DNA of 57,960 nt from Clostridia bacterium (GTDB lineage Bacteria; Bacillota; Clostridia; Oscillospirales; CAG-272): positions 1-57,960 of the forward strand of contig JAFQPI010000044.1 in NCBI GenBank assembly GCA_017411805.1, read 5' to 3'. The position numbers and the translations under genes are program-made. The notes beneath the pieces are model-generated. The model made no database searches. It had not been told where the DNA came from and worked only from the letters and a program-made list of their open reading frames with translations. This document shows positions 13,381-52,094 of the stretch, one piece after another (position 1 is the stretch's first letter; every line of letters begins with the position of its first letter).

Positions 13381-13391
13381 TTATGACCTCC

Positions 13392-31031: not shown

Positions 31032-31060
31032 TTGACAAAAAACGCGGATTGTGCTATAAT
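31032..31060 (+). promoter_or_regulatory. Sigma-A promoter of the C4-reduction/Flx-Hdr operon
   Basis: Consensus TTGACA (31032-31037), 17-bp spacer, TATAAT (31055-31060), extended -10 TGC. It is the only strong promoter before the run of genes from 31142 to 43732. Confidence 0.92.
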
Positions 31061-31141
31061 GTAAGATGAATCAAAATGTTTTGCCGGTTGCAAAAAACGT
31101 CGATAATCGGCAGAGCTTTAACATTCCGGAGGACTTTGCTA

Positions 31142-32089
31142 ATGGGAGCAAAAATTACCATCATCGGAGCCGGCAACGTCGGCTCAACCATCGCGTTTGC
31201 GCTTTCGGACGAGGATCTTGCATCCGAGATAGTTCTTATTGACATCAACAAGAACAAGGTCGAGGGCGAGGCAATGGATATCGTTCAGGGCACCTACTTC
31301 CGCGATCCGATCTCGGTCGTTGCCGGTGAGTATGAGGATGCCAAGGGATCCGATATCGTCATCATCACCTCGGGAGTTGCGCGCAAGCCCGGTCAGACAA
31401 GACTTGATCTGGCGCAGATCAACCTCAACATCATCAAGAGCATCACGCCCGAGATCGTCAGCGTTTGTCCCGACGCGCTTTACGTTATCGTAAGCAACCC
31501 CATGGATATCATGACCTACGCCTTTACCAAATATTCGGGACTCCCCGAAAGACAGATAATCGGCTCGGGCACCATCCTTGACACCGCGCGTCTCCGCTAT
31601 GCTCTCTCGGAGCATTACGGCGTATCTCAGAGAAGCATCCACGCTTACGTCTTCGGCGAGCACGGCGATACGTCCTTCATCCCGTGGTCGAGAGCATTCG
31701 TATCCTGCGTTCATATCGACGAATACCACAGACTCATGGCGCAGAAGGTCAAGTCGCTCAAGCCGCTTGACAAGGATTATATGCTTGAATACGTCCGCAA
31801 TTCGGGAGCAAAGATCATCAAGAACAAGGGCGCGACCTTCTATGCGATCGCGCAGACTGTTGCACAGCTCTGCGGCATACTGCTTGCTTCTTGCGATTCG
31901 ATCCAGATGGTATCCTCCATGATGCACGGCGAATACGGCATCAAGGACGTATGTCTTTCCACTCTTACGCTTGTCGGACCCCAGGGTATCCACGGAAAGG
32001 TGCCTATGGATCTGACCTACGAGGAGATCAGATTGCTCAACGCGAGCGCGGAATCGCTCAAGGCTGTCATCTCTAAGTTGGAATTTTAA
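31142..32089 (+). CDS. LDH/MDH-family dehydrogenase, Arg at specificity site (probable malate dehydrogenase)
   Basis: A 315-residue NAD-dependent 2-hydroxyacid dehydrogenase. The Rossmann motif IIGAGNVGSTIAFAL opens the protein; the catalytic His is His174 in FGEHGDTSF. Overall it resembles bacterial L-lactate dehydrogenases (SNPMDIMTY, GSGTILDTARLRY, NKGATFYAIA). However, at the substrate-specificity position (102 in LDH numbering, where lactate enzymes usually have Gln) it has Arg81 in GVARKPGQTR; that change is known to switch LDH towards oxaloacetate/malate. As first gene of an operon with fumarase and fumarate reductase, malate dehydrogenase is the better guess; lactate dehydrogenase remains possible. 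The ATG at 31142 follows GGAGG; the in-frame ATG at 31076 is too near the promoter. Confidence 0.85.
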   Translation: MGAKITIIGAGNVGSTIAFALSDEDLASEIVLIDINKNKVEGEAMDIVQGTYFRDPISVVAGEYEDAKGSDIVIITSGVARKPGQTRLDLAQINLNIIKSITPEIVSVCPDALYVIVSNPMDIMTYAFTKYSGLPERQIIGSGTILDTARLRYALSEHYGVSQRSIHAYVFGEHGDTSFIPWSRAFVSCVHIDEYHRLMAQKVKSLKPLDKDYMLEYVRNSGAKIIKNKGATFYAIAQTVAQLCGILLASCDSIQMVSSMMHGEYGIKDVCLSTLTLVGPQGIHGKVPMDLTYEEIRLLNASAESLKAVISKLEF

Positions 32090-32122
32090 TTTTTGGAAAT
32101 TATTTTTGAAAGGATAAAGATA

Positions 32123-32917
32123 ATGAAGTACAGTTACTATCCCGGTTGTACTCTGAAGAACAAGGCAAAGGATCTTGACGCATACGCAAGAGCGTCTGCC
32201 CTCGCGCTTGGCTTCGAGCTCGAGGAGATCGAAAATTGGCAGTGCTGCGGCGGTGTTTACCCCCTCGGCAGTGACGAGATCGCAACAAAGCTTTCCTCGG
32301 TTCGTGCGCTGAGTGATGCGAAGGAAAAGGGTCAGGATCTTGTTACCCTCTGTTCCGCATGCCATCACGTCATCAAGCGCGTAAACGATGATATGAAGAA
32401 TTGCGACGACATCCGCTTCAGAGCAAACAACTACCTTAAGCTGGACACACCCTACGCGGGCGAGACGAAGGTCATCCACTTCCTCGAGCTGCTGCGCGAT
32501 ACCATCGGCTTTGACGAGCTGAAGAAGCGTGTAGTAAAGCCCCTCACCGGAAAGAAGATCGGCGCTTATTACGGCTGTCTCCTGCTCCGTCCCTCCGGAG
32601 TTCTCGCGTTCGACGATCCCGAGAATCCCAAGATCATCGAGGACTTTATCCGCGCTATCGGCGCGACCCCCGTGGTCTACCCCTACCGCAATGAGTGCTG
32701 CGGCGGTTACATATCCCTCAAGGAGAAGGATATGGCGAAGAGTATGTGCGATAAGATCAAGGAAAGCGCATCCGGCTTCGGCGCAGATATGCTCATCACG
32801 GCATGTCCCCTTTGCATGTACAACCTCAACAAGAGTGCTGCAAACGGAATCCCCGTATACTATTTCACCGAGCTCCTCGCAGAGGCTCTCGGACTTAAGG
32901 AGGAGGCAGAGTCATGA
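32123..32917 (+). CDS. hdrB: Heterodisulfide reductase-like subunit B
   Basis: A 264-residue HdrB. Two CCG domains are complete: YYPGC...WQCCGGVYP...CSACHH and YYGCLLL...NECCGGY...CPLCMYN, each with the Cys set that binds a noncubane [4Fe-4S] cluster in HdrB. It is the catalytic site for cleaving a disulfide (CoM-S-S-CoB in methanogens); the bacterial substrate is unknown. It starts at ATG 32123 after AAAGGATAAAG, 33 bases behind the dehydrogenase, and overlaps hdrC by four bases. Confidence 0.93.
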   Translation: MKYSYYPGCTLKNKAKDLDAYARASALALGFELEEIENWQCCGGVYPLGSDEIATKLSSVRALSDAKEKGQDLVTLCSACHHVIKRVNDDMKNCDDIRFRANNYLKLDTPYAGETKVIHFLELLRDTIGFDELKKRVVKPLTGKKIGAYYGCLLLRPSGVLAFDDPENPKIIEDFIRAIGATPVVYPYRNECCGGYISLKEKDMAKSMCDKIKESASGFGADMLITACPLCMYNLNKSAANGIPVYYFTELLAEALGLKEEAES

Positions 32918-33303
32918 GTCACGCAAAGAATCAGGCAGAGCGCATCCGCGAGATCAGCGGAGTAAATCCTCTTAAATGTATGAAGTGCGGCAAGTGCTCG
33001 GCTACCTGCCCCGCTTTCAATGAGATGGACATCAAGCCCCATCAGTTCGTATCCTACGTTGCAAACGAGAATATCGAGGAGCTCGTAAAGAGCGATTCAC
33101 TCTGGAAGTGCCTTTCTTGCTTTGCATGCGTTGAGCGTTGCCCCAGAGACGTCAAGCCCGGCAAGATCATTGACGCGGCACGTCAGCTCGTTGTCCGCGA
33201 GCGCGGTGGCAATTACCTGAGCGCGGATGAGATCCCCGAGCTTCTTGATGAGGATACTCCTCAGCAGCTCCTCGTCAGCGCGTACAGAAGATATAAGAGG
33301 TGA
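32914..33303 (+). CDS. hdrC: Heterodisulfide reductase-like subunit C
   Basis: A 129-residue HdrC-type ferredoxin with two 4Fe-4S sites, CMKCGKCSATCPAF and CLSCFACVERCPRDVKP. It passes electrons from HdrA to HdrB. The ATGA overlap with hdrB and the very short distance to hdrA indicate a stoichiometric HdrABC complex. Length is normal for free-standing HdrC. Confidence 0.93.
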   Translation: MSHAKNQAERIREISGVNPLKCMKCGKCSATCPAFNEMDIKPHQFVSYVANENIEELVKSDSLWKCLSCFACVERCPRDVKPGKIIDAARQLVVRERGGNYLSADEIPELLDEDTPQQLLVSAYRRYKR

Positions 33304-33308
33304 GCAGA

Positions 33309-35297
33309 ATGCAGAGAATTGGTGTATTTGTCTGTCATTGCGGTAGTAACATCGCCGCAACGGTAGACGTTAAAAAGGTTGTCGAGGTGATCGCCTCCGA
33401 GCCCGGCGTTGTACATGCTGAGGATTATCAGTACATGTGCTCCGAGGCAGGTCAGGAAAAGATCGCCATCGCAGTAAGAGAGAAGAAGCTTACGGGTATA
33501 GTCGTTTGCTCCTGCTCTCCCCGTATGCACGAGGCTACCTTCAGAAAGGCTGCCGAGCGCGCGGGCATCAACCCCTATATGGTTGAGATCGCAAACATCC
33601 GTGAGCATTGCTCCTGGATCCATAAGGATATCAATGAGGCGACCGAGAAGGCAGTTATCCTCGCTCGTGCCGCAGTTGCAAAGGTCAACCTCAATACTCC
33701 CCTGACTCCCGGCGAGAGCCGCGTAACCAAGCGCGCGCTCGTTATCGGCGGCGGTATTGCGGGTATTCAGACCGCTCTCGATATCGCAGACGCGGGCTAC
33801 AAGGTTGATATCGTTGAGAAGACCCCCTCGATCGGCGGAAGAATGTCCCAGCTTGACAAGACCTTCCCGACCCTCGACTGCTCGGCTTGTATCCTCACCC
33901 CCAAGATGGTTGAGGCAGCCGCTCACGAGAACATTACCATTTATACATACAGCGAAGTAGAGAAGGTAAGCGGATTTGTCGGCGACTTCACCGTTGATAT
34001 CCGCAAGAAGGCAAGATTCATCGACGCCGATAAGTGTACCGGCTGCGGTGCTTGTCAGGAAAAGTGCCCCTCCAAGAAGACTCCGAGCGAGTTCAACCGC
34101 GGTCTCGGCACGAGAACTGCTATCTACACCCCCTTCGCTCAGGCTATCCCGAACGTACCCGTAATCGACACCGAGGCTTGTATCAAGTTCAAGACCGGTA
34201 AGTGCGGTCTCTGCCAGAAGATCTGTGCGGCAGGCGCGGTCGATTACACTCAGAAGGATGAGATCGTAACCGAGAAGTACGGCGCGATCGTCGTTGCAAC
34301 CGGTTTCGACACCATAAGTCTTGATAAGTACGACGAGTACGCATACAACCAGAGCCCCGACGTTATCACCTCCCTCGAGCTCGAGAGAGTAATGAACGCC
34401 GCAGGTCCTACACACGGTCATCTCGAGAGACTTTCCGACGGTAAGGCACCGAAGGAGATCGTATTCATTCAGTGCGTCGGCAGCCGTTGCTCGGACGACA
34501 GAGGCAAGCCCTACTGCTCCAAGATCTGCTGCATGTACACAGCAAAGCACGCAATGCTCATCCGCGATAAGTATCCGGACGTAAACGTGACCGTATTCTA
34601 CATCGACGTTCGTACCCCCGGTAAGAACTTCGACGAATTCTACCGCCGCGCTGTTGAGCAGTACGGTGTAAACTACGTCAAGGGTCAGGTCGGCAAGGTC
34701 ATTCCTCAGCCGAACGGCAAGCTCCTTGTTCAGGGAAGCGACCTTCTTGACAACAAGCAGATCCTCAAGGAAGCCGATATGGTAGTTCTCGCTACCGCGA
34801 TCGAGCCTAATAAGGATGTAAGAAAGATCGCTACAATGCTCACCGCAAGTATCGATACCAACAACTTCCTGACCGAAGCTCACGCAAAGCTCCGTCCCGT
34901 TGAGTCTCCCACAGCGGGTATCTTCCTCTCCGGCGTTGTTCAGGGACCGAAGGATATCCCCGAGACTGTTTCTCAGGCGGGTGCGGCTGCCGTTAAGGTC
35001 GTCGGACTCCTTGCAAAGGATAAGCTTATGACCAACCCCTGCACCGCAAAGGCAGACGAGCTTCTCTGTAACGGTTGCTCGAGCTGTGCTAACGTATGTC
35101 CCTACGGTGCTATCTCTTATGAGGACACTCTCGTCAACGACCACGGTATCCGTGAGACCCGCCGCATAGCGATCGTCAACAGCGCGCTTTGCCAGGGATG
35201 CGGTGCTTGTACCGTTGCTTGTCCTTCGGGAGCTATGGACCTTCAGGGCTTCTCTAACAGACAGATCTTGTCGGAGGTAGATGCAATATGTCGGTAA
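33309..35297 (+). CDS. hdrA: Heterodisulfide reductase-like subunit A, bifurcating flavoprotein
   Basis: A 662-residue HdrA. An N-terminal Cys-rich segment (FVCHCGSNIA; CSCSPRMHEATFRKA; NIREHCSWIH) precedes the FAD domain (VIGGGIAGIQTALDIADAGYKVDIVEK, PSIGGRMSQLDKTFPTLDCSACILTPKMVE). Inserted Fe-S sites are CTGCGACQEKCP and KCGLCQKICAAGAVDY; C-terminal ferredoxin sites are CNGCSSCANVCPYGAIS and CQGCGACTVACPSGAM. In known complexes the HdrA FAD splits electron pairs between ferredoxin and HdrB. The ATG at 33309 has AGAGGTGAG upstream; a GTG at 33300 overlapping the hdrC stop is the alternative. Confidence 0.93.
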   Translation: MQRIGVFVCHCGSNIAATVDVKKVVEVIASEPGVVHAEDYQYMCSEAGQEKIAIAVREKKLTGIVVCSCSPRMHEATFRKAAERAGINPYMVEIANIREHCSWIHKDINEATEKAVILARAAVAKVNLNTPLTPGESRVTKRALVIGGGIAGIQTALDIADAGYKVDIVEKTPSIGGRMSQLDKTFPTLDCSACILTPKMVEAAAHENITIYTYSEVEKVSGFVGDFTVDIRKKARFIDADKCTGCGACQEKCPSKKTPSEFNRGLGTRTAIYTPFAQAIPNVPVIDTEACIKFKTGKCGLCQKICAAGAVDYTQKDEIVTEKYGAIVVATGFDTISLDKYDEYAYNQSPDVITSLELERVMNAAGPTHGHLERLSDGKAPKEIVFIQCVGSRCSDDRGKPYCSKICCMYTAKHAMLIRDKYPDVNVTVFYIDVRTPGKNFDEFYRRAVEQYGVNYVKGQVGKVIPQPNGKLLVQGSDLLDNKQILKEADMVVLATAIEPNKDVRKIATMLTASIDTNNFLTEAHAKLRPVESPTAGIFLSGVVQGPKDIPETVSQAGAAAVKVVGLLAKDKLMTNPCTAKADELLCNGCSSCANVCPYGAISYEDTLVNDHGIRETRRIAIVNSALCQGCGACTVACPSGAMDLQGFSNRQILSEVDAICR

Positions 35298-35725
35298 ATA
35301 ATGAATTCAGACCCAAGATAGTTGCTTTCTGTTGCAACTGGTGCAGCTATGCGGGCGCGGACCTTGCGGGAAGCTCGAGACTTGCTTACCCCGCAGACGT
35401 AAAGATCATCCGCGTGCCCTGCTCCTGCCGTGTAAATCCTATGTTCATCCTTCGTGCTTTTGAAAAGGGCGCCGACGGCGTTATCATCTGCGGATGCCAC
35501 CCCGGCGACTGCCACTACAGCACGGGTAACTACTACGCAAGAAGAAGAATGACACTTCTGTTCTCAATGCTCGACTACATCGGCGTTGAGAAGGGACGTA
35601 CCCGCGTTGAGTGGGTATCCGCAGCAGAGGGTGTTAAGTTCTCTGATACAATGAATGACTTCGTAGCCAAGATCAAGGGTCTCGGCGAGAACGTCAGATT
35701 GGGGGATCTGAGATGCAAGAACTGA
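35288..35725 (+). CDS. flxD: MvhD/FlxD, electron-transfer adaptor to HdrA
   Basis: A 145-residue member of the MvhD family (methyl-viologen-reducing hydrogenase delta subunit). Cys-rich motifs FCCNWCSYAGADLAG, VPCSCRVNPMFILRAFEKGADGV and ICGCHPGDCHYSTGN are diagnostic. The protein carries a [2Fe-2S] cluster and docks an electron-input module on HdrA. Ten bases of overlap with hdrA and 13 with the next gene point to translational coupling. Confidence 0.93.
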   Translation: MSVNNEFRPKIVAFCCNWCSYAGADLAGSSRLAYPADVKIIRVPCSCRVNPMFILRAFEKGADGVIICGCHPGDCHYSTGNYYARRRMTLLFSMLDYIGVEKGRTRVEWVSAAEGVKFSDTMNDFVAKIKGLGENVRLGDLRCKN

Positions 35726-36684
35726 TTAATCGCGCAAAAGAGCTCCTTGCCGACGGTACAGTCGCAAGAGTTCTGGGCTGGAAGATCGGCGATATGCCCT
35801 ACAATCCCGAGCCCGCATATTTCGAGACCGTAGAAAGCCTTGATAAGTTCGTTTACAACGGATTCTGCGGCGCAAACCTTTCAAAATACATGATCGAGGC
35901 ATCCAAGCTCGAGGGCAAGACCCTCGTTTGCCTCAAGCCCTGCGACAGCTACAGCTTCAACCAGCTCCTCACCGAGCACCGCGTTGACAGAGATAAGGCG
36001 TACATAATCGGCGTCGGCTGTAAGGGTAAGCTCGATATCGAGAAGATCAAGAAGACCGGTATCAAGGGTATCACCGCAGTAAGCGGTGCCGAGATGACCG
36101 ACGCTTGCGACACTCTCGAGATCGATACTATATATGGTAAGAAATCCTGCTCCTACAACGACGGCATGCTTGAGAGATGCCACGTCTGCAAGGGCAAGGA
36201 GCACAAGATCTACGATGAGCTTATCGGCGAATCCCGAGATACCTGCGACAAGGAAAGATTCGCAGAGGTCGAGAGGATCGAGGCTATGAGCCCCGAGGAG
36301 AAGTTCGAGTTCTTCAAGGCTGAGCTTTCCAAGTGCATCCGCTGCAACGCGTGCAGAAACGTATGCCCCGCTTGCTCCTGCCGTAAGTGCGTATTCGACA
36401 GCACGAAGTTCGATTCGGCTCAGAAGGCGAATGTCGATTCCTTCGAGGAAAAGATGTTCCACATCATCCGCGCGTTCCACGTTGCGGGCAGATGCACCGA
36501 CTGCGGCGAGTGTAGCAGAGTATGTCCTCAGGGCATTCCGCTCCACCTCTTCAACAGAAAGTTCATCAAGGACATCAACGAGATCTACGGCGAGTACGTA
36601 GCGGGCGCAGAGGCGGGAAGCCGCGCACCCCTCGTAAACTTCGATACCGAGGACGCCGAGCCCTCCATTGTTAACGAAAGGTGA
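35713..36684 (+). CDS. flxC: FlxC-like iron-sulfur protein
   Basis: A 323-residue Fe-S protein. The N-terminal half has FrhB-like segments (LVCLKPCDSYSFNQLL, YIIGVGCKGKLDIEKI, CHVCKGKEHKIYDE); the C-terminal half has two 4Fe-4S sites, CIRCNACRNVCPACSCRKC and CTDCGECSRVCPQGIPL. This is the composition and position of FlxC in FlxABCD-HdrABC clusters, where it relays electrons from the NADH-binding FlxA. It overlaps both neighbours. The naming as FlxC rather than FlxB is by similarity and gene order. Confidence 0.8.
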   Translation: MQELINRAKELLADGTVARVLGWKIGDMPYNPEPAYFETVESLDKFVYNGFCGANLSKYMIEASKLEGKTLVCLKPCDSYSFNQLLTEHRVDRDKAYIIGVGCKGKLDIEKIKKTGIKGITAVSGAEMTDACDTLEIDTIYGKKSCSYNDGMLERCHVCKGKEHKIYDELIGESRDTCDKERFAEVERIEAMSPEEKFEFFKAELSKCIRCNACRNVCPACSCRKCVFDSTKFDSAQKANVDSFEEKMFHIIRAFHVAGRCTDCGECSRVCPQGIPLHLFNRKFIKDINEIYGEYVAGAEAGSRAPLVNFDTEDAEPSIVNER

Positions 36685-36692
36685 GTATAGTG

Positions 36693-37721
36693 ATGTATAA
36701 GATAGCAAAAGAAAATCTGGCGTCCTTATTCGCCCTTATCAATGAAAATAACGAGCTCTACCTGCCCGTGCAGGTCGCGGGACAGACCAACTTCGCGGCT
36801 TACACAGCTGACGCAAACGTAGATCTTGACACCCTCAAGACCGTAAAGTCCCCCAAGGACGTATTCTTCCCCCAGAGCGAGACCCTTTATACTTGTAATA
36901 AGGAAGACAATAAGCTGAAGATCACTCCCGAGAAGCTTGTTGACGCACCCTTCGTAGTTTTCGGCATGAAGGCTTGCGACATCAAGGGCATTGAGGTGCT
37001 CGACAGAGTATTCCTTTCCGACCCCGTTGACTCCTTCTACGCGGCAAGACGCGCACACGGCACGATCGTTGCTCTCGCTTGCCATGAGCCCGAGGAGAGC
37101 TGCTTCTGTAAGGTTTTCGGCGTTGACTGCACCGAGCCCGCTGCGGATGTTGCAACCTGGATGATTGAGGGTGAGCTCTACTGGAAGGCTCTCACCGAAA
37201 AGGGCGAGAAGCTGACCGAGTCCCTCAAGTCGCTTCTGACCGACGCTGACGAGGCAAAGGTCGAGGCAGAGAAGAGCGCAGTCAAGGAGATCGTAGAAAA
37301 GCTTCCTTATTCCAACCTCTCTCTCGAGGGCTGGAACGGCGACGTTCTCACCGAGAAGTTCAATGACGCTCTTTGGAATGAGCTTTACAAGCCCTGTCTT
37401 GCGTGCGGCACATGCACATTCGTATGCCCCACCTGCCAGTGCTACGATATCAAGGACTACAACACCGGTAACGGTGTGCAGAGATACCGCTGCTGGGACT
37501 CCTGCATGTACTCCGATTTCACAATGATGGCACACGGTAACAACCGTAACAGCCAGATGCAGAGATTCAGACAGAGATTTATGCACAAGCTCGTCTATTT
37601 CCCTGCAAACAACGACGGTATGTATTCCTGCGTAGGATGCGGACGTTGCGTGGACAAGTGCCCCGCGTCTCTCAATATCGTCAAGGTAATCAAAGCATTC
37701 AGCGAGAAGGGAGATAAGTGA
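36693..37721 (+). CDS. flxB: FlxB-like 4Fe-4S dicluster protein (AsrA-like)
   Basis: A 342-residue protein with an AsrA/hydrogenase-associated N-terminal region (FGMKACDIKGIEVLDRVF, ALACHEPEESCFCKVFGVDC) and two C-terminal 4Fe-4S sites, CLACGTCTFVCPTCQCYD and CVGCGRCVDKCPASLNI. It is thought to relay electrons in the Flx module. The ATG at 36693 with AAAGGTGAG upstream is preferred; a GTG at 36681 overlaps the previous gene. It ends against flxA with an overlap or a two-base gap depending on the flxA start. Confidence 0.82.
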   Translation: MYKIAKENLASLFALINENNELYLPVQVAGQTNFAAYTADANVDLDTLKTVKSPKDVFFPQSETLYTCNKEDNKLKITPEKLVDAPFVVFGMKACDIKGIEVLDRVFLSDPVDSFYAARRAHGTIVALACHEPEESCFCKVFGVDCTEPAADVATWMIEGELYWKALTEKGEKLTESLKSLLTDADEAKVEAEKSAVKEIVEKLPYSNLSLEGWNGDVLTEKFNDALWNELYKPCLACGTCTFVCPTCQCYDIKDYNTGNGVQRYRCWDSCMYSDFTMMAHGNNRNSQMQRFRQRFMHKLVYFPANNDGMYSCVGCGRCVDKCPASLNIVKVIKAFSEKGDK

Positions 37722-37723
37722 TA

Positions 37724-38623
37724 ATGAGCAACCATGACCACAAGCACGGCGAGCATGAATGTACATGCTTCCCCGGCTTCAAGCACGACGTTCTGATCCC
37801 CCAGATCGGTATCATCACCGATATCCGTGAGGAGACACCCGACGTAAAGACCTTCCGCGTTAATGCTCCCGAGGGCGGCAAGCTCTTCGAGCATATGCCC
37901 GGCCAGTGCGCAATGCTCTGCGTTCCCGGCGTAAGCGAGGGTATGTTCTCGATTACTTCCTCCCCCACAAACAAGGAATATCAGGAATTCAGTATCAAGA
38001 GATGCGGAATGCTCACAGAGATGCTCCACAGCCTCGAGGTCGGTTCCGAGATCACCGTAAGAGGACCCTACGGCAACAACTTCCCCGTAGATACCGTCCT
38101 CAAGGGAAAGGATCTCGTATTCATCGCCGGCGGTATCGGACTTGCTCCCCTCCGTTCGGTAATCAACTACGTTATCGACAACAGAGCGGATTACGGCAAG
38201 GTAGACATCATCTACGGCTCCCGTTCGGCTGACGACCTTGTTCAGCTTAAGGAAATTCAGGAAGTCTGGATGAACACTCCCGGTGTAAACGTACACCTCA
38301 CCATCGACCGTGAGCAGGAGGGCTGGACCGGACACGTAGGCTTCGTTCCCACCTTCGTCAAGGAGCTTGGCGAATCGGGACAGGTCGAGTTCGGTATCAA
38401 TACTATCTCCCTCATCTGCGGACCTCCCATCATGATCAAGTTCGTTCTCGGCGCACTCGGCGATATGGGCGTTTCCAAGACCCAGATCTACACCACCCTC
38501 GAGCTTCGTATGAAGTGCGGCGTTGGCAAGTGCGGAAGATGCAATATCGGCTCCAAGTACGTCTGCAAGGACGGACCGGTATTCCGCTTCGACGAGGTCG
38601 ACGAGCTTCCCCCCGAGTTTTAA
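37724..38623 (+). CDS. flxA: FlxA-like NAD(P)H-binding flavoprotein
   Basis: A 299-residue ferredoxin-NADP-reductase-type protein. FAD domain (PGQCAMLCVPGVSEGMFSITSSP), NAD domain (VFIAGGIGLAPLRSVINYV; IYGSRSADDL; CGPPIMIKFVLGAL) and a C-terminal [2Fe-2S] motif (LRMKCGVGKCGRCNIGSKYVCKDG). This is the family of AsrB and dihydroorotate-dehydrogenase electron-transfer subunits; FlxA is the NADH entry point of the Flx-Hdr complex. The N-terminus has an unusual His/Cys stretch (HDHKHGEHECTC). The start could be GTG 37718 instead of ATG 37724. Confidence 0.88.
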   Translation: MSNHDHKHGEHECTCFPGFKHDVLIPQIGIITDIREETPDVKTFRVNAPEGGKLFEHMPGQCAMLCVPGVSEGMFSITSSPTNKEYQEFSIKRCGMLTEMLHSLEVGSEITVRGPYGNNFPVDTVLKGKDLVFIAGGIGLAPLRSVINYVIDNRADYGKVDIIYGSRSADDLVQLKEIQEVWMNTPGVNVHLTIDREQEGWTGHVGFVPTFVKELGESGQVEFGINTISLICGPPIMIKFVLGALGDMGVSKTQIYTTLELRMKCGVGKCGRCNIGSKYVCKDGPVFRFDEVDELPPEF

Positions 38624-38670
38624 TTAACACCTAATCTGATATTGAATTATTGAAAGGACTTAAACCGAAT

Positions 38671-39345
38671 ATGGAAAATATGGTTAATGTGTATTTCTTC
38701 GGTAAGAAATACAGCGTTCCCGCAGACCTTACGATCATGACGGCTATGGAGTATGCAGGCTACACTCTCAAGAGAGGTTGCGGCTGCCGCCACGGTTTCT
38801 GCGGTGCTTGTGCTACTATTTACAGAATCAAGGGTCAGAATGAGCTTAAGACCTGCCTCGCTTGCCAGACTCAGGTACAGGAAGGCATGTACGTAGCGTC
38901 GATCCCCTTCTTCCCCACAGATAAGAGAACATACGAGATCAAGGATCTTCGTCCCAACCAGCAGGTTATGATGGAGCTCTACCCCGAGATCTACTCCTGC
39001 ATCGGATGCAATGCCTGCACCAAGGCTTGTACCCAGGGCCTCAACGTTATGCAGTACATCGCATACGCGCAGAGAGGCGAGTTCGAGAAGTGCGCTGAGG
39101 AATCCTTCGACTGCGTAAGCTGCGGCGTTTGCTCGGTTCGCTGCCCCGCAGAGATCTCGCATCCTCACGTAGGACTTCTTGCAAGACGTCTTACCGGTAA
39201 GTACATCGCTCCCGAGACCGAGCATCTCAAGAACCGCGTTGACGAGATCAACCGCGGCGAGTATGACGAGCTCATCGAGAAGGTTATGCAGAAGCCTATC
39301 TCCGAAATGCAGGAGCTCTACAACACCAGAGAAATTGAGAAATAA
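38671..39345 (+). CDS. frdB: Fumarate reductase iron-sulfur subunit (TfrB-like, no CCG domain)
   Basis: A 224-residue Fe-S protein: an N-terminal [2Fe-2S] domain (RGCGCRHGFCGACATIY, TCLACQ) and two C-terminal 4Fe-4S sites (CIGCNACTKACTQG; CVSCGVCSVRCPAEISH). Ordinary SdhB/FrdB would end in a [3Fe-4S] site facing a membrane anchor; here both C-terminal sites look 4Fe-4S and HdrC-like. The layout matches methanogen thiol:fumarate reductase TfrB without its CCG domain, and HdrB of this operon could supply that role. No sdhC/frdC anchor gene exists nearby, so the enzyme is probably soluble. ATG 38671 is favoured over a TTG at 38650. Confidence 0.82.
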   Translation: MENMVNVYFFGKKYSVPADLTIMTAMEYAGYTLKRGCGCRHGFCGACATIYRIKGQNELKTCLACQTQVQEGMYVASIPFFPTDKRTYEIKDLRPNQQVMMELYPEIYSCIGCNACTKACTQGLNVMQYIAYAQRGEFEKCAEESFDCVSCGVCSVRCPAEISHPHVGLLARRLTGKYIAPETEHLKNRVDEINRGEYDELIEKVMQKPISEMQELYNTREIEK

Positions 39346-39359
39346 GGAGGGACTACAGA

Positions 39360-40961
39360 ATGTATACTCAGGAAATGCTTGAATCCATAAAGAAACTTGA
39401 AGCATCGCGTGCCGCACGTATGGCTACAGAGCCCAGACGTATGACCGCTGACGAAAAGTCCGCTCTTCTTAAGGCTTACCATCCCGACTACCGTCCCGAA
39501 GGCTTCGCTGAGATCAAGGTTGGTCCCAACAAGGGCGAAAAGGTTCCCTGCGAGCTCGGTCAGCTTCTCCATTCCAACAGCCGTATCCTTGGCGAGAAGA
39601 TCGACCTTAATAAGGTTGATTACGACGTTGACGTTCTCGTAATCGGCGGCGGCGGCGCAGGCTGTGCGGCTGCGATCGAGGCTCACGAGGCAGGTGCTGA
39701 CGTAATGATCGTTACAAAGCTCCGCATCGGTGACGCTAACACTATGATGGCAGAGGGCGGTATCCAGGCTGCTGACAAGCCCAACGACTCCCCCGTTCAG
39801 CACTATCTCGACGCTTTCGGCGGCGGACACTTTGCAGCTCGTCCCGAGCTTCTTCGCCGTCTCGTTATGGAAGCTCCCGACGCGATCCGTTGGCTCAACG
39901 ACCTCGGCGTTATGTTCGATAAGGACGCAGAGGGCAATATGGTCACAACCCACGGCGGCGGAACCTCCCGCAAGAGAATGCACGCTTGCAAGGACTACTC
40001 GGGCGCAGAGATCATGAGAACCGTACGCGACGAGGTTCTTAACAGACAGGTTCCCGTTGTTGAGTTCACCGCAGCAGTTGAGCTCATCAAGGACGAAAAG
40101 GGTCAGGTTGCAGGCGCGGTTCTTCAGAACCTTGAGACCGAGGATTACCTCGTAGCTCGCGCTAAGACCGTTATCATCGCAACCGGCGGCGCGGGACGTC
40201 TCCACTATCAGGGCTTCCCCACCTCCAACCACTACGGCGCAACCGCAGACGGTCTCGTTCTCGGTTACCGCGCAGGTGCTCCCCTCCTTTATCAGGACAC
40301 AATTCAGTACCATCCCACAGGAGCTATCTTCCCCGCACAGATCAAGGGTGCGCTCGTTACCGAGAAGGTACGTTCGATCGGTGCAATGCTCGTAAACTCC
40401 GAGGGCGAGGCATTTATGCATCCCCTTGAGACCCGTGACGTTTCCGCGGCATCCATCATCCGTGAGTGCTCGACAAACGGCAAGGGCGTCAACACTCCCA
40501 GCGGCAAGGGCGTATGGCTTGATACTCCCATGATCGAGAAGCTCCATGGCGAGGGAACCATCGAGAAGAGAATCCCCGCTATGCTCCGTATGTACATGAA
40601 CTACGGTATCGATATGAGAAAGGTACCGATCGTTATCTACCCCACTCTCCACTATCAGAACGGCGGTCTCGAGATCGGCGGAGAGGGCTTTACCAAGACC
40701 ATTCCCAACCTCCTTGTTGCGGGTGAGGCTGTCGGCGGTATCCACGGTAGAAACAGACTTATGGGTAACTCCCTCCTTGATATCATCGTATTCGGCCGTA
40801 ACGCAGGTAAGGCAGCAGCGGCTAAGGCACGCGAAGTTGAGCTCGGCACAATGAACCTTGACCACCTCCAGGCTTATGCTGAGGAACTCAAGGCGGCAGA
40901 TGCGACCGAAGAGGGCGTATCTCCCATGCTTCTTCCCAACTACGCTCGCCACGAAAGATAA
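39360..40961 (+). CDS. frdA: Fumarate reductase/succinate dehydrogenase flavoprotein subunit
   Basis: A 533-residue FAD enzyme that reduces fumarate to succinate (or the reverse). FAD-binding VIGGGGAGCAAAIEAHEAGADV; DANTMMAEGGIQAA; HGGGTSRKRMH; the substrate motif HPTGAIFP; the C-terminal FAD motif VAGEAVGGIHGRNRLMGNSLLDIIVFGRNAGK. The family also includes L-aspartate oxidase, but no NAD-biosynthesis genes are near and an Fe-S partner lies 14 bases upstream. An extra N-terminal stretch of ~85 residues precedes the FAD domain, as in TfrA-like enzymes. AAGGAGGGA before the ATG. Confidence 0.88.
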   Translation: MYTQEMLESIKKLEASRAARMATEPRRMTADEKSALLKAYHPDYRPEGFAEIKVGPNKGEKVPCELGQLLHSNSRILGEKIDLNKVDYDVDVLVIGGGGAGCAAAIEAHEAGADVMIVTKLRIGDANTMMAEGGIQAADKPNDSPVQHYLDAFGGGHFAARPELLRRLVMEAPDAIRWLNDLGVMFDKDAEGNMVTTHGGGTSRKRMHACKDYSGAEIMRTVRDEVLNRQVPVVEFTAAVELIKDEKGQVAGAVLQNLETEDYLVARAKTVIIATGGAGRLHYQGFPTSNHYGATADGLVLGYRAGAPLLYQDTIQYHPTGAIFPAQIKGALVTEKVRSIGAMLVNSEGEAFMHPLETRDVSAASIIRECSTNGKGVNTPSGKGVWLDTPMIEKLHGEGTIEKRIPAMLRMYMNYGIDMRKVPIVIYPTLHYQNGGLEIGGEGFTKTIPNLLVAGEAVGGIHGRNRLMGNSLLDIIVFGRNAGKAAAAKAREVELGTMNLDHLQAYAEELKAADATEEGVSPMLLPNYARHER

Positions 40962-40981
40962 TAGGGGGCGGCGAATAACAA

Positions 40982-42253
40982 ATGGAGTTTATTTCTAAGC
41001 TGATAAATCCCGGAAGCGCGGCTGTTGTGCTCCTCGGAGCATTCTTCATCACCTTTCTCGGATACTGTCTCGGCAGAATCTCGATCAAGGGCGTTTCGCT
41101 CGGAACTGCGGGTGTGTTCCTCGTAGCACTCCTTTTCGGATATCTGTTCACCCTTCCGGGTCTGCAGAATATTCCCGTTCTCTCTAAGTTTTTCATAGCC
41201 GATGCATCCGCGTCCGCTATGGATAGCTATGGATTTATCGGAGACATTGGACTTGTACTCTTTGTGACCGCGGTTGGTTCTATCGCAGGACCTAACTTCT
41301 TCCGCGACCTTAAAAAGAACGCGAAAACATATCTCCCTATGGGAGCGATCATTATCGTTATCGGCGCGGGCGTCGCAACAGCGTTCGCACTCATCCCCGG
41401 AATCGGCTCCGCTTTTGCAAGCGGAGTCCTCTCCGGAGCTCTCACCTCGACCCCCGCGTTCTCCGCTGCTAAGGAGATCGCAGGCGAGAATTCCGCAATG
41501 GTTTCGCTCGGACAGGCTATTTCCTACCCCTTCGGAGTAGTCGGCGTTGTTCTTTTTGTTCAGATCATGCCGAAGATCCTCCGCGCTGATATGGCGAAGG
41601 AAAGAGCGCTCATTGCCGCTCCCGCAAAGAACGCGGAGACCAAGACCGTGGAAAAGAAGGAAAAGAAGAGATTTGACATCGACGGATTCGGCTTTGCCGC
41701 ATTCGGACTTGCGGTCGTATTCGGACTCCTCCTCGGCTCTATCAAGATACCGCTTACCTCCGCAGGCTTTGGCGGATCTTGCTTCTCGCTCGGTATGACG
41801 GGAGGTCCGCTGATCATGGCACTTGTCCTTGCTCATTTCGGACACATCGGCCCGCTCAATATGAGAGTCAATACTCAGGTCCTCAAGATCTTCCGCGAAT
41901 TCGGACTCGTACTCTTCCTTCTGGGAGCCGGCGTCGAGGGTGGCGTACAGCTCGTACAGCAGATCCAGAATTCCGAGTACGGACTTATGATCGTTCTCTA
42001 CGGATTTATTGCAGGTGTTATCATTACCCTCATCCCGATGGTGGTCGGTTACATCTTCGCAAGAAAGGTTTGCAAGCTTCCTCTGCTCAATACCCTCGGT
42101 TCTATCACCGGCGGTATGACCTCTACTCCCGCACTCGGTACCCTTATCGCAGTTGCGGAGACCGACGACGTTGCGGGCGCGTATGCTTCGACCTACCCGA
42201 TCGCACTCGTTCTGGTCGTATTTGCTTGCCAGATCATTGGTATTGTTTGCTGA
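40982..42253 (+). CDS. AspT/SucE-family dicarboxylate exchanger or exporter
   Basis: A 423-residue membrane protein with about ten helices in two halves. Each half has the repeated motifs of the aspartate:alanine exchanger family (DIGLVLFVTAVGSIAGPNFF and FGLVLFLLGAGVEGGVQL; GALTSTPAFSAAK and GGMTSTPALGTLI). The charged central linker KTVEKKEKKRFD is cytoplasmic. Corynebacterium SucE, a succinate exporter, belongs to this family, so export of the succinate made by the operon (or exchange with malate/aspartate) is the likely role (inference). It lies 20 bases after frdA and 79 before fumarase. Confidence 0.83.
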   Translation: MEFISKLINPGSAAVVLLGAFFITFLGYCLGRISIKGVSLGTAGVFLVALLFGYLFTLPGLQNIPVLSKFFIADASASAMDSYGFIGDIGLVLFVTAVGSIAGPNFFRDLKKNAKTYLPMGAIIIVIGAGVATAFALIPGIGSAFASGVLSGALTSTPAFSAAKEIAGENSAMVSLGQAISYPFGVVGVVLFVQIMPKILRADMAKERALIAAPAKNAETKTVEKKEKKRFDIDGFGFAAFGLAVVFGLLLGSIKIPLTSAGFGGSCFSLGMTGGPLIMALVLAHFGHIGPLNMRVNTQVLKIFREFGLVLFLLGAGVEGGVQLVQQIQNSEYGLMIVLYGFIAGVIITLIPMVVGYIFARKVCKLPLLNTLGSITGGMTSTPALGTLIAVAETDDVAGAYASTYPIALVLVVFACQIIGIVC

Positions 42254-42332
42254 CGCAGCACTTGTAAAACTGCGTTTAACAAGATTTATAATTGGCTATT
42301 TGTTAATCTATTTTATAGGAGAAACTTAAAAA

Positions 42333-43175
42333 ATGCGTGAAATTAACGTACAGCAGATCATCGATACCGTTGAAAAGCTCTGTATCGATGCAAACACTCA
42401 TCTTCCTTCCGATGTTAAGTGTGCAATTAAGAATTGCCGTGCTTGTGAGGACGGCAAGATCGCTCAGGGTGTTCTTGATAACATTATCGAGAACTTCGAG
42501 ATCGCGGATAACGAGAACGTTCCGATCTGTCAGGATACCGGCATGGCTTGCGTATTCCTTGAGATCGGTCAGGACGTACATATCGTAGGCGGCGACCTTA
42601 CCGATGCCATCAACGAAGGCGTACGCCGCGGTTATACCAACGGCTACCTTCGTAAGTCTGTAGTTGCAGACCCCGTTCGCCGCGGCAACACCGGCGACAA
42701 CACTCCCGCAATGATCTACACTGAGATCGTTCCCGGCGAGAACCTCAAGATCACAGTCGGCCCCAAGGGCTTCGGCAGTGAGAACATGTCGGCTATCCGT
42801 ATGTTCAAGCCCTCCGCAGGTCTCCAGGGTATCAAGGACTTCATCATTGAGACAGTTGAGACCGCAGGTCCCAATCCCTGTCCTCCCATCGTAGTCGGCG
42901 TCGGAATCGGCGGTACATTCGATAAGGCGGCTCTCCTTGCAAAGAAGGCTATCATGAGATCCATCGACTCCTCCAACCCCGATCCTTACTACGCAGATCT
43001 TGAGCGTGAAATGCTCGAGAAGATCAATCAGCTCGGCATCGGTCCCCAGGGCTTCGGCGGCAAGACCACCGCTATCGGTCTCAATATCGAAACTCTCCCC
43101 ACTCATATCGCGGGTATGCCTTGTGCAATCAACATCAACTGCCACGTAACCCGTCATAAATCGGAGGTACTTTAA
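42333..43175 (+). CDS. Class I fumarase, alpha subunit
   Basis: A 280-residue alpha subunit of the two-subunit Fe-S hydro-lyase (fumarase/tartrate dehydratase family), interconverting malate and fumarate. Likely [4Fe-4S] ligands are the Cys in PICQDTG, the Cys in GPNPCPP and one further Cys. Other markers: RGNTGDNTPAMIYTEIVPG, GPKGFGSENMS, VVGVGIGGTFDKAALLAKKA, GPQGFGGKTTAIG. An ATAGGAG site precedes the ATG. Tartrate dehydratase is an alternative, but the operon context favours fumarase. The beta subunit begins two bases after the stop. Confidence 0.92.
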   Translation: MREINVQQIIDTVEKLCIDANTHLPSDVKCAIKNCRACEDGKIAQGVLDNIIENFEIADNENVPICQDTGMACVFLEIGQDVHIVGGDLTDAINEGVRRGYTNGYLRKSVVADPVRRGNTGDNTPAMIYTEIVPGENLKITVGPKGFGSENMSAIRMFKPSAGLQGIKDFIIETVETAGPNPCPPIVVGVGIGGTFDKAALLAKKAIMRSIDSSNPDPYYADLEREMLEKINQLGIGPQGFGGKTTAIGLNIETLPTHIAGMPCAININCHVTRHKSEVL

Positions 43176-43177
43176 TC

Positions 43178-43732
43178 ATGGCAAGAAAGATCACACTTCC
43201 TCTTACCGAGGAGCTTGCAAAGACACTTCATGCAGGTGACGAGGTTCTCGTAACCGGTATCATCTACACGTCTCGTGACGCAGGTCACAAAAGAATGTGC
43301 GAGACTCTCGCGGCAGGCGAGAAGCTTCCCTTCGATCCCACCGACGCAACTATTTACTACGTTGGTCCCACTCCCGCAAAGCCCGGTCAGGTCATCGGCT
43401 CCGCAGGACCCACCACCAGCGGCCGTATGGACGCATACGCTCCCACAATGATGAGCGTCGGCGCACGCGGCATGATCGGTAAGGGCGCGCGCCTTCCCGA
43501 AGTTATCGACGCTATGAAGAAATATTCGGGCGTTTACTTCGGTGCTATCGGAGGCGCAGGCGCACTTCTTGCAAAGTGCATCAAGAGCTGTGAGCTCATC
43601 GCTTACGAGGATCTCGGAGCAGAGGCTCTCCGCAAGCTCTACGTTGAGGATATGCCCCTCGTTGTTATCATCGACAGCGAAGGCAAGAACCTCTACGAGG
43701 ACGGCAGAAAGGCTTACCTCGAGAGCAAATAA
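43178..43732 (+). CDS. Class I fumarase, beta subunit
   Basis: A 184-residue beta subunit completing the fumarase. Supporting segments are AGDEVLVTGIIYTSRDAGHKRM, IYYVGPTPAKPGQVIGSAGPTTSGRMD, MIGKGAR and YFGAIGGAGALLAKCIKS. Length is normal for split fumarases. Last gene of the operon; an intrinsic terminator begins six bases after its stop codon. Confidence 0.92.
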   Translation: MARKITLPLTEELAKTLHAGDEVLVTGIIYTSRDAGHKRMCETLAAGEKLPFDPTDATIYYVGPTPAKPGQVIGSAGPTTSGRMDAYAPTMMSVGARGMIGKGARLPEVIDAMKKYSGVYFGAIGGAGALLAKCIKSCELIAYEDLGAEALRKLYVEDMPLVVIIDSEGKNLYEDGRKAYLESK

Positions 43733-43738
43733 TCACAC

Positions 43739-43776
43739 AAAAAACGACTCGCTGTTTTTACGGCGAGTCGTTTTTT
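43739..43776 (+). terminator. Terminator of the C4-reduction/Flx-Hdr operon
   Basis: A 14-bp stem AAAAAACGACTCGC / GCGAGTCGTTTTTT with an 8- to 10-nt loop and T-run. Confidence 0.92.
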
Positions 43777-43873
43777 GTGTATGTCGAAAAAAGAAGAAAC
43801 ATTGAATACACTATAATTTGATAAGTTTTTTCAACTTACGTTGACTTTTTTGGCAAAAGTATAGAAAAAGTAC

Positions 43874-45437: not shown

Positions 45438-45466
45438 TTGACAATGGGCGTTATATATGTTATAAT
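45438..45466 (+). promoter_or_regulatory. Sigma-A promoter of nfnAB
   Basis: TTGACA (45438-45443), 17-bp spacer, TATAAT (45461-45466), extended -10 TGT. Confidence 0.92.
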
Positions 45467-45530
45467 ATTATGATTTAATAGGTAGGAATCTACTTTATCA
45501 TTGAAATTTTTATTTGAACGGAGAGATAAA

Positions 45531-46385
45531 ATGTACAGAATCGTTGAAAAAAAGATTTTGAACCCCACAGTCGTTCAGCTCCAGATCGAGGCTCCCCTTG
45601 TAGCAAACAAGGCAAAGCCCGGTCAGTTCATCATCCTTCGCGTTGATGAGAGCGGCGAGCGTATCCCCCTTACCGTTGCAGGCACCAACAAGGAAGCAGG
45701 CACCGTTAAGATCATCTTCCAGATCGTCGGCGGAACTACCGAAAAGCTCAGCCACAAGGAAGAGGGCGATTACATTCAGGACTTCGTAGGTCCCCTCGGT
45801 GTTGCTACCCACCTCGACGGACTCAAGAAGGTCTGCATCGTTGGCGGCGGCGTTGGCTGCGCTATTGCGATGCCCATCGCAGAGGCACTTCACGCAAGAG
45901 GCGTTGATGTCACCTCCATCATCGGCTTCAGAAACAAGGATCTTCTCATCCTTGAGGACGAGTTCAGAGCTTGCTCCAATACCCTTCGCGTCATGACCGA
46001 CGACGGTTCCTACGGCGAGCACGGTAACGTAACCGTTCCGCTTAAGGAAATGCTCGAGGCAGGCGAGAAGTTTGATATGATCATCACCATCGGCCCGCTG
46101 ATCATGATGAAGTTCGTAACCCTCACAGCAAAGCCCTTCGGCACTCCCGTAACCGTTTCGATGAACCCCATCATGATCGACGGTACAGGCATGTGCGGCG
46201 GCTGCCGTCTTACCCTCAACGTTGACGGTAAGAAGGTTACCAAGTTCGCATGCGTTGACGGTCCCGACTTCAACGGCTACGAAGTAGATTTCGACGAGGC
46301 TATGTCCCGCGGAAGAATGTATTTCGATTTCGAGCGTCACGCTCACGAGGAGACTTGCAATCTCTTCAAAAAGGAGGTACAGTAA
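45531..46385 (+). CDS. nfnA: NfnA, ferredoxin:NADP+ oxidoreductase small subunit
   Basis: A 284-residue FAD/[2Fe-2S] subunit of the bifurcating NADH-dependent reduced ferredoxin:NADP+ oxidoreductase. FAD domain AKPGQFIILRVDESGERIPLTVAG; NAD-binding VCIVGGGVGCAIAMPIAEALHARGVDVTSIIGFRNKDLL; [2Fe-2S] Cys in GTGMCGGCRLTLNVDGKKVTKFACVDGP. The start is ATG 45531 with GGAGAG upstream. One base separates it from nfnB, so the two subunits are made together. Sulfide dehydrogenase is an older name for relatives. Confidence 0.93.
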   Translation: MYRIVEKKILNPTVVQLQIEAPLVANKAKPGQFIILRVDESGERIPLTVAGTNKEAGTVKIIFQIVGGTTEKLSHKEEGDYIQDFVGPLGVATHLDGLKKVCIVGGGVGCAIAMPIAEALHARGVDVTSIIGFRNKDLLILEDEFRACSNTLRVMTDDGSYGEHGNVTVPLKEMLEAGEKFDMIITIGPLIMMKFVTLTAKPFGTPVTVSMNPIMIDGTGMCGGCRLTLNVDGKKVTKFACVDGPDFNGYEVDFDEAMSRGRMYFDFERHAHEETCNLFKKEVQ

Positions 46386-46386
46386 A

Positions 46387-47871: not shown

Positions 47872-47980
47872 TGATTCTTCCGTGGCTGCAATAATTTCGG
47901 CCACGGAAGAATGCTTATAGGGTGATTTTCCCAGAAAAATTTTGCGCGGCAACTTCGCGCCAATAATAAAGGAGAACAAA

Positions 47981-50343: not shown

Positions 50344-50345
50344 TC

Positions 50346-52040: not shown

Positions 52041-52054
52041 TAATAATAATATCT

Positions 52055-52079
52055 GCGGCGGCTTTGCCGCCGCAGACTT
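52055..52079 (+). terminator. Hairpin between the two hydrogenase genes (attenuator-like)
   Basis: An 11-bp stem TCTGCGGCGGC / GCCGCCGCAGA with a TTT loop, no T-run. It may weaken rather than end transcription into the second hydrogenase gene. Confidence 0.55.
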
Positions 52080-52094
52080 ACTGTAAGGTAAAAA

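What the first reader, a model, noticed from the sequence alone, without database searches (positions are those of the whole stretch)
31032..43776. Single operon for oxaloacetate-to-succinate reduction and export, wired to an electron-bifurcating Flx-Hdr complex
One consensus promoter and one terminator enclose thirteen co-directional genes: LDH/MDH-like enzyme, hdrB-C-A, flxD-C-B-A, frdB, frdA, AspT/SucE-type transporter and fumarase alpha/beta. Seen: gene order, overlaps and cofactor motifs. Known: FlxABCD-HdrABC couples NADH oxidation to ferredoxin and disulfide reduction; fumarase and fumarate reductase form the reductive C4 branch; SucE is a succinate exporter of the AspT family. Inference: NADH oxidised at FlxA is split at HdrA, with the high-potential branch ending at fumarate (directly or through a thiol pair made by HdrB) and the low-potential branch reducing ferredoxin for Rnf and hydrogenase. 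That would make this a soluble NADH-dependent, ferredoxin-bifurcating fumarate reductase system, which I do not know as a described complex.
Basis: partly seen in the sequence, partly recalled or inferred. Interest (0 to 1): 0.9.

Follow-up and report, generated by a model that had tools for sequence, protein, structure and literature searches.

The report
NADH-bifurcating fumarate reductase operon
One operon joins a succinate-forming enzyme to a complex thought to split the electrons of NADH; the idea is already in print for another bacterium, but here it proves to be a widespread, tightly kept arrangement in gut Clostridia, which makes it testable.

Summary
In detail: promoter 31032-31060, thirteen + strand genes, terminator 43736-43779. 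The claim that the complex is undescribed is not: the same "succinate operon", with ferredoxin coupling proposed, is published for Pseudoclostridium thermosuccinogenes (PMC7282089), and Flx-Hdr interspersed with tfrAB for tubeworm symbionts (PMC6315080). My searches found no biochemical proof.
Added here: in the window's class this FrdA occurs in 40 of 291 genomes and FlxD in 45, 39 shared. Of 113 distinct frdA loci, 104 hold hdr/flx genes; the other nine start at a contig edge. FrdAB co-diverges with Hdr-Flx (r 0.80-0.93); the transporter does not (0.11-0.24). FrdA has Asn where covalent-FAD enzymes have His; FrdB has ligands for [2Fe-2S] plus two [4Fe-4S].
Limit: in other classes 19 of 39 relatives have no Hdr beside them. 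Best reading: NADH is bifurcated at HdrA to ferredoxin and, through HdrCB-FrdB-FrdA, to fumarate; the ferredoxin and direct-transfer steps are inferred. Blautia luti carries the operon; its fumarate reductase activity was assayed in crude extract in 2026.

The parts
31032..31060 (+). sigma-70 type promoter, TTGACA-17-TATAAT, extended -10
   Evidence: 12 of 12 consensus match; sequence
31142..32089 (+). malate dehydrogenase of the LDH/MDH family (longer ORF from 31076)
   Evidence: Ldh_1_N/Ldh_1_C; L-LDH model over cut-off, MDH models under; MDH-type Arg in ARKPG, 50 of 50 copies aligned
32123..32917 (+). hdrB, two CCG non-cubane cluster motifs (ORF from TTG 32093)
   Evidence: PF02754; ten cluster Cys invariant in 83 of 83 distinct class sequences
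32914..33303 (+). hdrC, two [4Fe-4S]
   Evidence: 8 Cys 80 of 80
33300..35297 (+). hdrA, FAD subunit with ferredoxin-type domains (presumed bifurcation site)
   Evidence: NF040770 805.6 bits (cut-off 1100); PDB relatives 5odc_A, 8rvu_a
35288..35725 (+). flxD (FlpD/MvhD-like)
   Evidence: PF02662 1.6e-54
35713..36684 (+). flxC, dicluster Fe-S subunit
   Evidence: Fer4_8; C-terminal part matches FdhB chains of Hdr complexes
36681..37721 (+). flxB, Fe-S subunit (Fer4_22)
   Evidence: sulfhydrogenase/AsrA-like under cut-offs
37718..38623 (+). flxA, FAD/NAD(P)H subunit with [2Fe-2S]
   Evidence: PF00175, PF00970, PF10418
38665..39345 (+). frdB: [2Fe-2S] domain plus two [4Fe-4S] motifs, no CCG domain (ORF from TTG 38650)
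   Evidence: 12 ligand Cys 106 of 106 distinct sequences
39360..40961 (+). frdA: fumarate reductase flavoprotein, Asn at the covalent-FAD His position, N-terminal extension of about 86 aa, no PF02910 match
40982..42253 (+). AspT/YidE/YbjL-family transporter, candidate succinate exporter
   Evidence: PF06826; TIGR01625 over cut-off
42333..43175 (+). fumarase class I alpha subunit
   Evidence: PF05681 1.2e-119
43178..43732 (+). fumarase class I beta subunit
   Evidence: PF05683 7.1e-57
43736..43779 (+). intrinsic terminator hairpin, 17-nt arms with loop of 10
   Evidence: read from sequence

Best explanation
The operon encodes the last steps of oxaloacetate to succinate, with an anchorless fumarate reductase as the high-potential end of an NADH-oxidising bifurcating complex. 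Steps: MDH and fumarase make fumarate (inferred from families). NADH is oxidised at FlxA; electrons pass FlxB/FlxC and FlxD to the FAD of HdrA (by homology). There one electron of each pair goes down in potential to ferredoxin through HdrA's ferredoxin domains and the other goes up through HdrC and HdrB to FrdB and FrdA, which reduces fumarate with a non-covalent FAD (inferred). Net: 2 NADH + Fd(ox) + fumarate gives 2 NAD+ + Fd(red) + succinate, about -33 to -49 kJ/mol under standard conditions for ferredoxin at -500 to -420 mV (textbook potentials). Reduced ferredoxin feeds Rnf (genes at 10548-14741) or the hydrogenases (47942-53510) of the same contig; succinate may leave by the AspT-type carrier.
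For: Co-occurrence in the class: FrdA 40 of 291, FlxD 45 of 291, both 39 (Fisher p 8e-41, genomes not independent). Adjacency in 38 of 38 fetched class neighbourhoods; with the 80 named loci 109 of 118, or 104 of 113 after removing five repeats of the same DNA, the other nine having frdA at most 867 nt from a contig edge. On the FrdA tree the Flx-Hdr label is clustered and needs four changes, gains or losses, and three gene orders occur. Pairwise distances of FrdA and FrdB track the seven Hdr/Flx subunits at r 0.80-0.93; against frdA, frdB, hdrA and flxA, fumA gives 0.84-0.92, mdh 0.48-0.60, aspT 0.11-0.24. HdrB goes with FrdAB: present in 81 of 82 distinct class loci with hdrA and hdrC (the one without, L054, is cut in hdrC by the contig end); not found in four HdrC-HdrA-FlxABCD clusters of the MTHFR type (MTHFR by Pfam in three, by size and order in one); and beside hdrC-frdBA without hdrA or flx in four loci. 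Methanogen TfrB aligns in pieces to FrdB (19-88), HdrC (119-219) and HdrB (396-487). Catalytic residues kept, covalent-FAD His replaced. No Sdh_cyt over cut-off in 291 genomes; 7 weak matches below it, none in a FrdA genome. In P. thermosuccinogenes the operon rises about 4-fold under CO2 limitation, not significant for all subunits (PMC7282089, passages).
Against: I found no biochemistry that shows ferredoxin reduction with fumarate. A purified relative, HdrABC-MvhD-MetFV of Moorella, did not reduce ferredoxin (Mock 2014 as told in PMC8578096, passage), so Hdr linkage alone does not prove bifurcation. FrdAB of this family occurs without Hdr beside it in 19 of 39 places in other classes (one truncated, L235), next to malic-enzyme-like, pyruvate carboxylase, NapC-type cytochrome or b561 genes (named by family search for eight of these loci only); four family genomes have no FlxD match. 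The four label changes on the tree may be losses as well as gains. HdrB keeps all ten cluster cysteines (83 of 83), as a thiol enzyme would. In tubeworm symbionts tfrAB expression departed from the rest of the cluster (PMC11636981, passage). Correlated distances also follow from linkage and shared descent. One class locus (L146) has a broken frdA frame.
Confidence: 0.55

Rival explanations
1. Thiol-mediated: HdrB reduces a cellular disulfide as in classical FlxABCD-HdrABC, and the dithiol then gives electrons to FrdAB as in methanogen thiol:fumarate reductase. Bifurcation to ferredoxin still takes place.
For: All ten CCG cysteines of HdrB conserved, 83 of 83 class and 19 of 19 in the other-class set that includes the window. 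FrdA's best NCBIfam model is TfrA. Four hdrCB-frdBA loci without hdrA or flx resemble a split Tfr.
Against: FrdB has no CCG match to take up a thiol. The operon has no carrier gene such as dsrC and no room for one (gaps at most 79 nt); the rest of the genome was not searched for one. HdrB would have to act both ways.
Confidence: 0.17
2. Plain NADH:fumarate reductase: Flx-Hdr passes both electrons from NADH to FrdAB and no ferredoxin is reduced.
For: Exergonic without coupling (-68 kJ/mol). The Moorella MetFV-Hdr complex did not reduce ferredoxin (PMC8578096). The B. luti paper uses an NADH-dependent fumarate reductase in its theoretical pathway (PMC12773636).
Against: The eight Cys of HdrA's C-terminal ferredoxin domain are kept in 84 of 84; a simple enzyme would not need seven Hdr/Flx subunits.
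Confidence: 0.17
3. FrdAB uses another donor (reduced ferredoxin, flavodoxin or a membrane carrier) and Flx-Hdr serves a different reaction, the two merely being co-regulated.
For: FrdAB relatives without Hdr in other classes; low-potential viologen drives fumarate reduction in B. luti extract.
Against: Near-total co-occurrence and adjacency in the class and co-divergence.
Confidence: 0.08
4. The complex runs backwards, confurcating reduced ferredoxin and succinate electrons to NAD+.
For: Such complexes are reversible in principle (recalled).
Against: Uphill by 33 to 49 kJ/mol in standard terms; succinate is a product in P. thermosuccinogenes and B. luti.
Confidence: 0.03

Closest known systems
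Succinate operon of Pseudoclostridium thermosuccinogenes (PMC7282089; preprint 201912.0288 cited there, not held)
   Same: Fumarate hydratase, Flx-Hdr, fumarate reductase and a possible succinate transporter in one operon; coupling to ferredoxin reduction proposed
   Different: There a single fumarate hydratase locus tag is listed; here a two-subunit fumarase and an MDH gene are included. I did not obtain its sequence for comparison
flxABCD-hdrABC with tfrAB and korABCD in tubeworm symbionts and Thioflavicoccus (PMC6315080, PMC11636981)
   Same: Hdr-Flx genes conserved in one cluster with a fumarate reductase; a complex with direct transfer suggested
   Different: Reverse TCA cycle in autotrophs, with OGOR and transhydrogenase genes; called thiol:fumarate reductase
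FlxABCD-HdrABC of Desulfovibrio (Ramos 2015, recalled and as cited)
   Same: Same seven subunits
   Different: No frdAB in the complex; a disulfide is taken as acceptor (recalled)
Methanogen thiol:fumarate reductase TfrAB
   Same: Best NCBIfam model for FrdA; TfrB matches FrdB, HdrC and HdrB in pieces
   Different: One fused TfrB chain; FrdA 336.9 bits against a cut-off of 718
MetVF-Hdr-MvhD/Flx complexes of acetogens
   Same: HdrA-HdrC-FlxABCD type genes beside a different reductase
   Different: Methylene-THF reductase as end module; no HdrB found in the four clusters seen here; HdrA 34-42% identical to the window's

Membership tests
FlxABCD-HdrABC NADH dehydrogenase/heterodisulfide reductase | All seven subunits with their Fe-S and flavin motifs | tested here: met
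   PDB relatives for HdrA. The archaeal NCBIfam equivalog cut-offs are not reached
FlxABCD-HdrABC NADH dehydrogenase/heterodisulfide reductase | Electron bifurcation to ferredoxin and a disulfide | not testable with these tools
   needs enzyme assay
Thiol:fumarate reductase (TfrAB) | TfrA over the curated cut-off | tested here: not met
   336.9 bits against 718
Thiol:fumarate reductase (TfrAB) | TfrB with fused CCG (HdrB-like) domain | tested here: not met
   FrdB has no PF02754 match; HdrB is a separate gene
Quinol:fumarate reductase / succinate dehydrogenase | Covalent-FAD histidine | tested here: not met
   Asn in 118 of 118 class loci (five repeat the same DNA) and 39 of 39 other family members; His in 4 of 9 distant controls (Gly 4, Asn 1)
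Quinol:fumarate reductase / succinate dehydrogenase | Membrane anchor subunit | tested here: not met
   none in the operon; PF01127 over cut-off in 0 of 291 genomes, 7 weak matches below; other anchor families not searched
Quinol:fumarate reductase / succinate dehydrogenase | [3Fe-4S] cluster pattern in FrdB | tested here: not met
   eight Cys in a two-[4Fe-4S] pattern in 106 of 106, (cluster types read from the motifs)
8-methylmenaquinol:fumarate reductase (SdhABE) | SdhE over the curated cut-off | tested here: not met
   HdrB's best NCBIfam model but 140.4 bits against 500
Succinate operon of P. thermosuccinogenes | Fumarase, Flx-Hdr, Frd and a possible transporter in one operon | tested here: met
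   gene content, against PMC7282089 passages
Succinate operon of P. thermosuccinogenes | Sequence relation of the subunits | not tested
   that genome's sequence was not obtained
SucE succinate exporter | Succinate export by the AspT-family protein | not testable with these tools
   only family level shown: TIGR01625 over cut-off; Asp/Ala antiporter model 108 against 546.95; SucE itself recalled

The most novel reading that the evidence does not exclude
FlxABCD-HdrAC is a general bifurcating core with exchangeable acceptor modules (MTHFR without HdrB; FrdAB with HdrB). In gut Clostridia HdrB has become a direct wire, its non-cubane clusters passing single electrons to FrdB with no disulfide, so that one soluble nine-subunit complex makes succinate and reduced ferredoxin and gives Blautia and its kin extra ATP through Rnf (at most about 0.23 ATP per glucose at 0.42 succinate per glucose).
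Probability: 0.4. Interest if true: 0.75.

Novelty: new member of a known kind. Interest (0 to 1): 0.5.

Why it matters
Succinate is a product of gut fermentation, and how anchorless fumarate reductases of Clostridia get their electrons is, as far as my searches show, not settled. If the operon works as read, each succinate brings a reduced ferredoxin, which changes ATP and hydrogen budgets. The 2026 study of Blautia luti measured viologen:fumarate reductase in crude extract (504 to 989 mU/mg), found frdAB highly transcribed and modelled ATP yield with an NADH-dependent enzyme; the words Hdr, Flx and heterodisulfide do not occur in its main text (PMC12773636, passages). The locus of a B. luti strain (L131, MSK.16.34) carries hdrBCA-flxDCBA-frdBA-fumAB, so the question can be tested in a cultured gut bacterium.

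Tried and rejected
Rejected: 'seen only in this genome'. Rejected: canonical quinol:fumarate reductase. Rejected: 'always linked to Flx-Hdr'; outside the class 19 of 39 are not. Flags of missing flxD (L091, L125, L140) or hdrC (L081) were artefacts of my ORF choice: tblastn finds the missing gene in each, so 83 of 118 with all nine genes labelled is an undercount. Five of the 118 class loci repeat DNA drawn twice. A 1144-aa neighbour that I thought might be a redox subunit is pyruvate carboxylase (L225), and the 446-483-aa neighbours tested (L236, L247, L258) are malic-enzyme-like. PF02621 (menaquinone pathway, also found in solute-binding proteins as I recall) gave one partial match, 29.7 bits over a cut-off of 26, in the own genome, so menaquinone is neither shown nor excluded. 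PF13375 hits are unspecific (they ring in Bacillus subtilis); Rnf genes were confirmed. Co-evolution of residue pairs was not tried: the sequences are too alike. The own genome is 84.7% complete, so absences are weak.
Full report
What is there. Thirteen co-directional ORFs lie between a perfect promoter (31032-31060) and a hairpin terminator (43736-43779): MDH-like, hdrB, hdrC, hdrA, flxD, flxC, flxB, flxA, frdB, frdA, AspT-type transporter, fumarase alpha and beta. hdrB to flxA overlap by 4 to 13 nt; the other gaps are 2 to 79 nt. Families were confirmed.

What kind of fumarate reductase. FrdA keeps residues that line the dicarboxylate site of SdhA/FrdA (H318, T334, E335, R338, H431, R466; 112 of 112 distinct class sequences; in other classes 39 of 39 except T334, Ser in one; that these are the site residues is recalled). 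Where covalent-FAD enzymes have His (aligned) it has Asn127: 118 of 118 class loci (five repeats) and 39 of 39 family members in other classes, against His in 4 of 9 distant controls (Gly 4, Asn 1). It has no PF02910 match and an N-terminal extension of about 86 residues. FrdB has four [2Fe-2S] Cys and eight Cys for two [4Fe-4S], invariant in 106 of 106. Its dicluster part resembles RnfC and CdhA, its N-terminus TfrB. The best NCBIfam model for FrdA is TfrA, well below cut-off. No anchor gene lies in the operon, and PF01127 passes its cut-off in 0 of 291 class genomes (7 weaker matches, none in a FrdA genome).

How firm is the link to Flx-Hdr in the class. In an even draw of 291 genomes FrdA (E up to 1e-60) is in 40 and FlxD (PF02662) in 45; 39 have both. 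The FrdA-only genome, G071, is 75% complete and its cluster ends at a contig edge. Of six FlxD-only genomes one (G032) is a truncated Frd-type cluster, four carry an Hdr-Flx cluster of the MTHFR type without HdrB (MTHFR by Pfam in three, by size and order in L187), and one (G022) differs. I fetched 38 neighbourhoods of the 40 (the other two are the window itself and G196, whose gene is split over contigs): 38 of 38 show Hdr/Flx genes next to frdBA. Together 109 of 118, or 104 of 113 distinct; the other nine begin at a contig edge with frdA at most 867 nt in. Among the 113: all nine core genes labelled in 79, a fumarase in 88, the transporter in 66, MDH in 53, truncated loci included. In some loci a class II fumarase replaces the two-subunit one (Pfam on L048).

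Co-divergence. On 100 FrdA sequences under 97% identity, distances of FrdA and FrdB correlate with those of the seven Hdr/Flx subunits at 0.80 to 0.93 (71 to 91 shared loci), as high as HdrA and FlxA do with the other Hdr/Flx subunits (0.81-0.94). Against frdA, frdB, hdrA and flxA, fumA gives 0.84 to 0.92 (45-61 loci), MDH 0.48 to 0.60 (39-40), the transporter 0.11 to 0.24 (38-54). Linkage alone contributes, but the transporter and MDH are linked too and follow poorly.

The wider family, for and against. In 398 genomes of the phylum the scores are bimodal: 39 places in 38 genomes beside the own at 600 bits or more, then nothing until 277. Around the 39: full Flx-Hdr 5, HdrCBA with a second long HdrA and FlxD 11 (some cut by contig ends), HdrCB only 4, no Hdr 19 (one truncated). 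34 of 38 family genomes hold FlxD somewhere against 125 of 359 others; four have no match. On a quick tree of 84 rows (39 family, 9 distant controls, window, and 35 class loci chosen by identity) the Flx-Hdr label needs four changes, gains or losses (the tree has long control branches). So FrdAB is a module that has gained or lost the Hdr core more than once, and in the window's class it is bound to it.

Where HdrB stands. HdrB is present in 81 of 82 distinct class loci with hdrA and hdrC (the exception, L054, is cut in hdrC), is not found in the four MTHFR-type clusters, and lies with hdrC and frdBA without hdrA or flx in four loci. TfrB of methanogens matches FrdB, HdrC and HdrB in successive pieces. 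This places HdrB on the fumarate branch. It does not say whether electrons cross directly or through a thiol.

Energy and context. The same contig carries Rnf genes (RnfC, D, E models), NfnAB-type genes, a HydABC-type hydrogenase and a monomeric [FeFe] hydrogenase. The overall reaction is exergonic by about 33 to 49 kJ/mol in standard terms.

What was known. PMC7282089 (passages) describes the succinate operon of P. [quoted passage not shown] PMC6315080 (passages) suggests a complex with direct transfer in tubeworm symbionts; PMC11636981 (passages) adds expression data, with tfrAB departing from the rest. Searches for a biochemical demonstration found none (one open-access library). PMC12773636 (passages) gives fumarate reductase activity in crude extract of B. 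luti without naming Hdr or Flx; a PF00890 search shows further FAD_binding_2 proteins in the genome of L131, so the assayed activity is likely but not proven to be this enzyme.

Verdict. A real, well conserved system; the hypothesis is published and, as far as I found, unproven. The value added is breadth, boundary conditions (where it holds and where not), subunit signatures and a ready test organism. Checking the counts changed none of my odds.

Noticed in passing
45501-47802: NfnAB-type (electron-bifurcating transhydrogenase) genes with a perfect promoter of their own at 45438-45466, same extended -10 form as the operon's
   Followed up: partly
47942-53510: HydC-, HydB- and HydA-type (group A6-like, under its cut-off) hydrogenase genes followed by a monomeric [FeFe] hydrogenase of the B1 model
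   Followed up: partly
10548-14741 (- strand): Rnf genes: RnfC, RnfD and RnfE models; the ORF 11159-12442 between them matches no NCBIfam model at 1e-20
   Followed up: partly
L186-L189: HdrC-long HdrA-FlxABCD clusters with an MTHFR gene (Pfam in L186, L188, L189; by size and order in L187) and no HdrB or CCG-pattern protein found: an alternative end module on the same core
   Followed up: partly
L234, L241, L248, L252: hdrC-hdrB-frdB-frdA without hdrA or flx genes: looks like a four-gene split thiol:fumarate reductase
   Followed up: no
L227-L229, L231-L233, L237, L238, L243, L249, L256: hdrCBA plus a second long HdrA, FlxD and a protein of about 367 aa (no NCBIfam match at 1e-15 in L228), then frdBA; some loci are cut by contig or locus ends: an unexplained electron-input variant
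   Followed up: no
phylum search: Many FlpD-type frames carry one in-frame TGA, which suggests selenocysteine in those FlxD/MvhD proteins; the window's FlxD frame has none
   Followed up: no
L262, L263: Early-branching family members beside a protein with Fer4 and cytochrome b561 domains, a possible membrane donor for the same FrdAB
   Followed up: no
L146: frdA of Sporofaciens musculi is in two pieces with stops inside, so the gene looks broken there while the rest of the cluster is labelled
   Followed up: no
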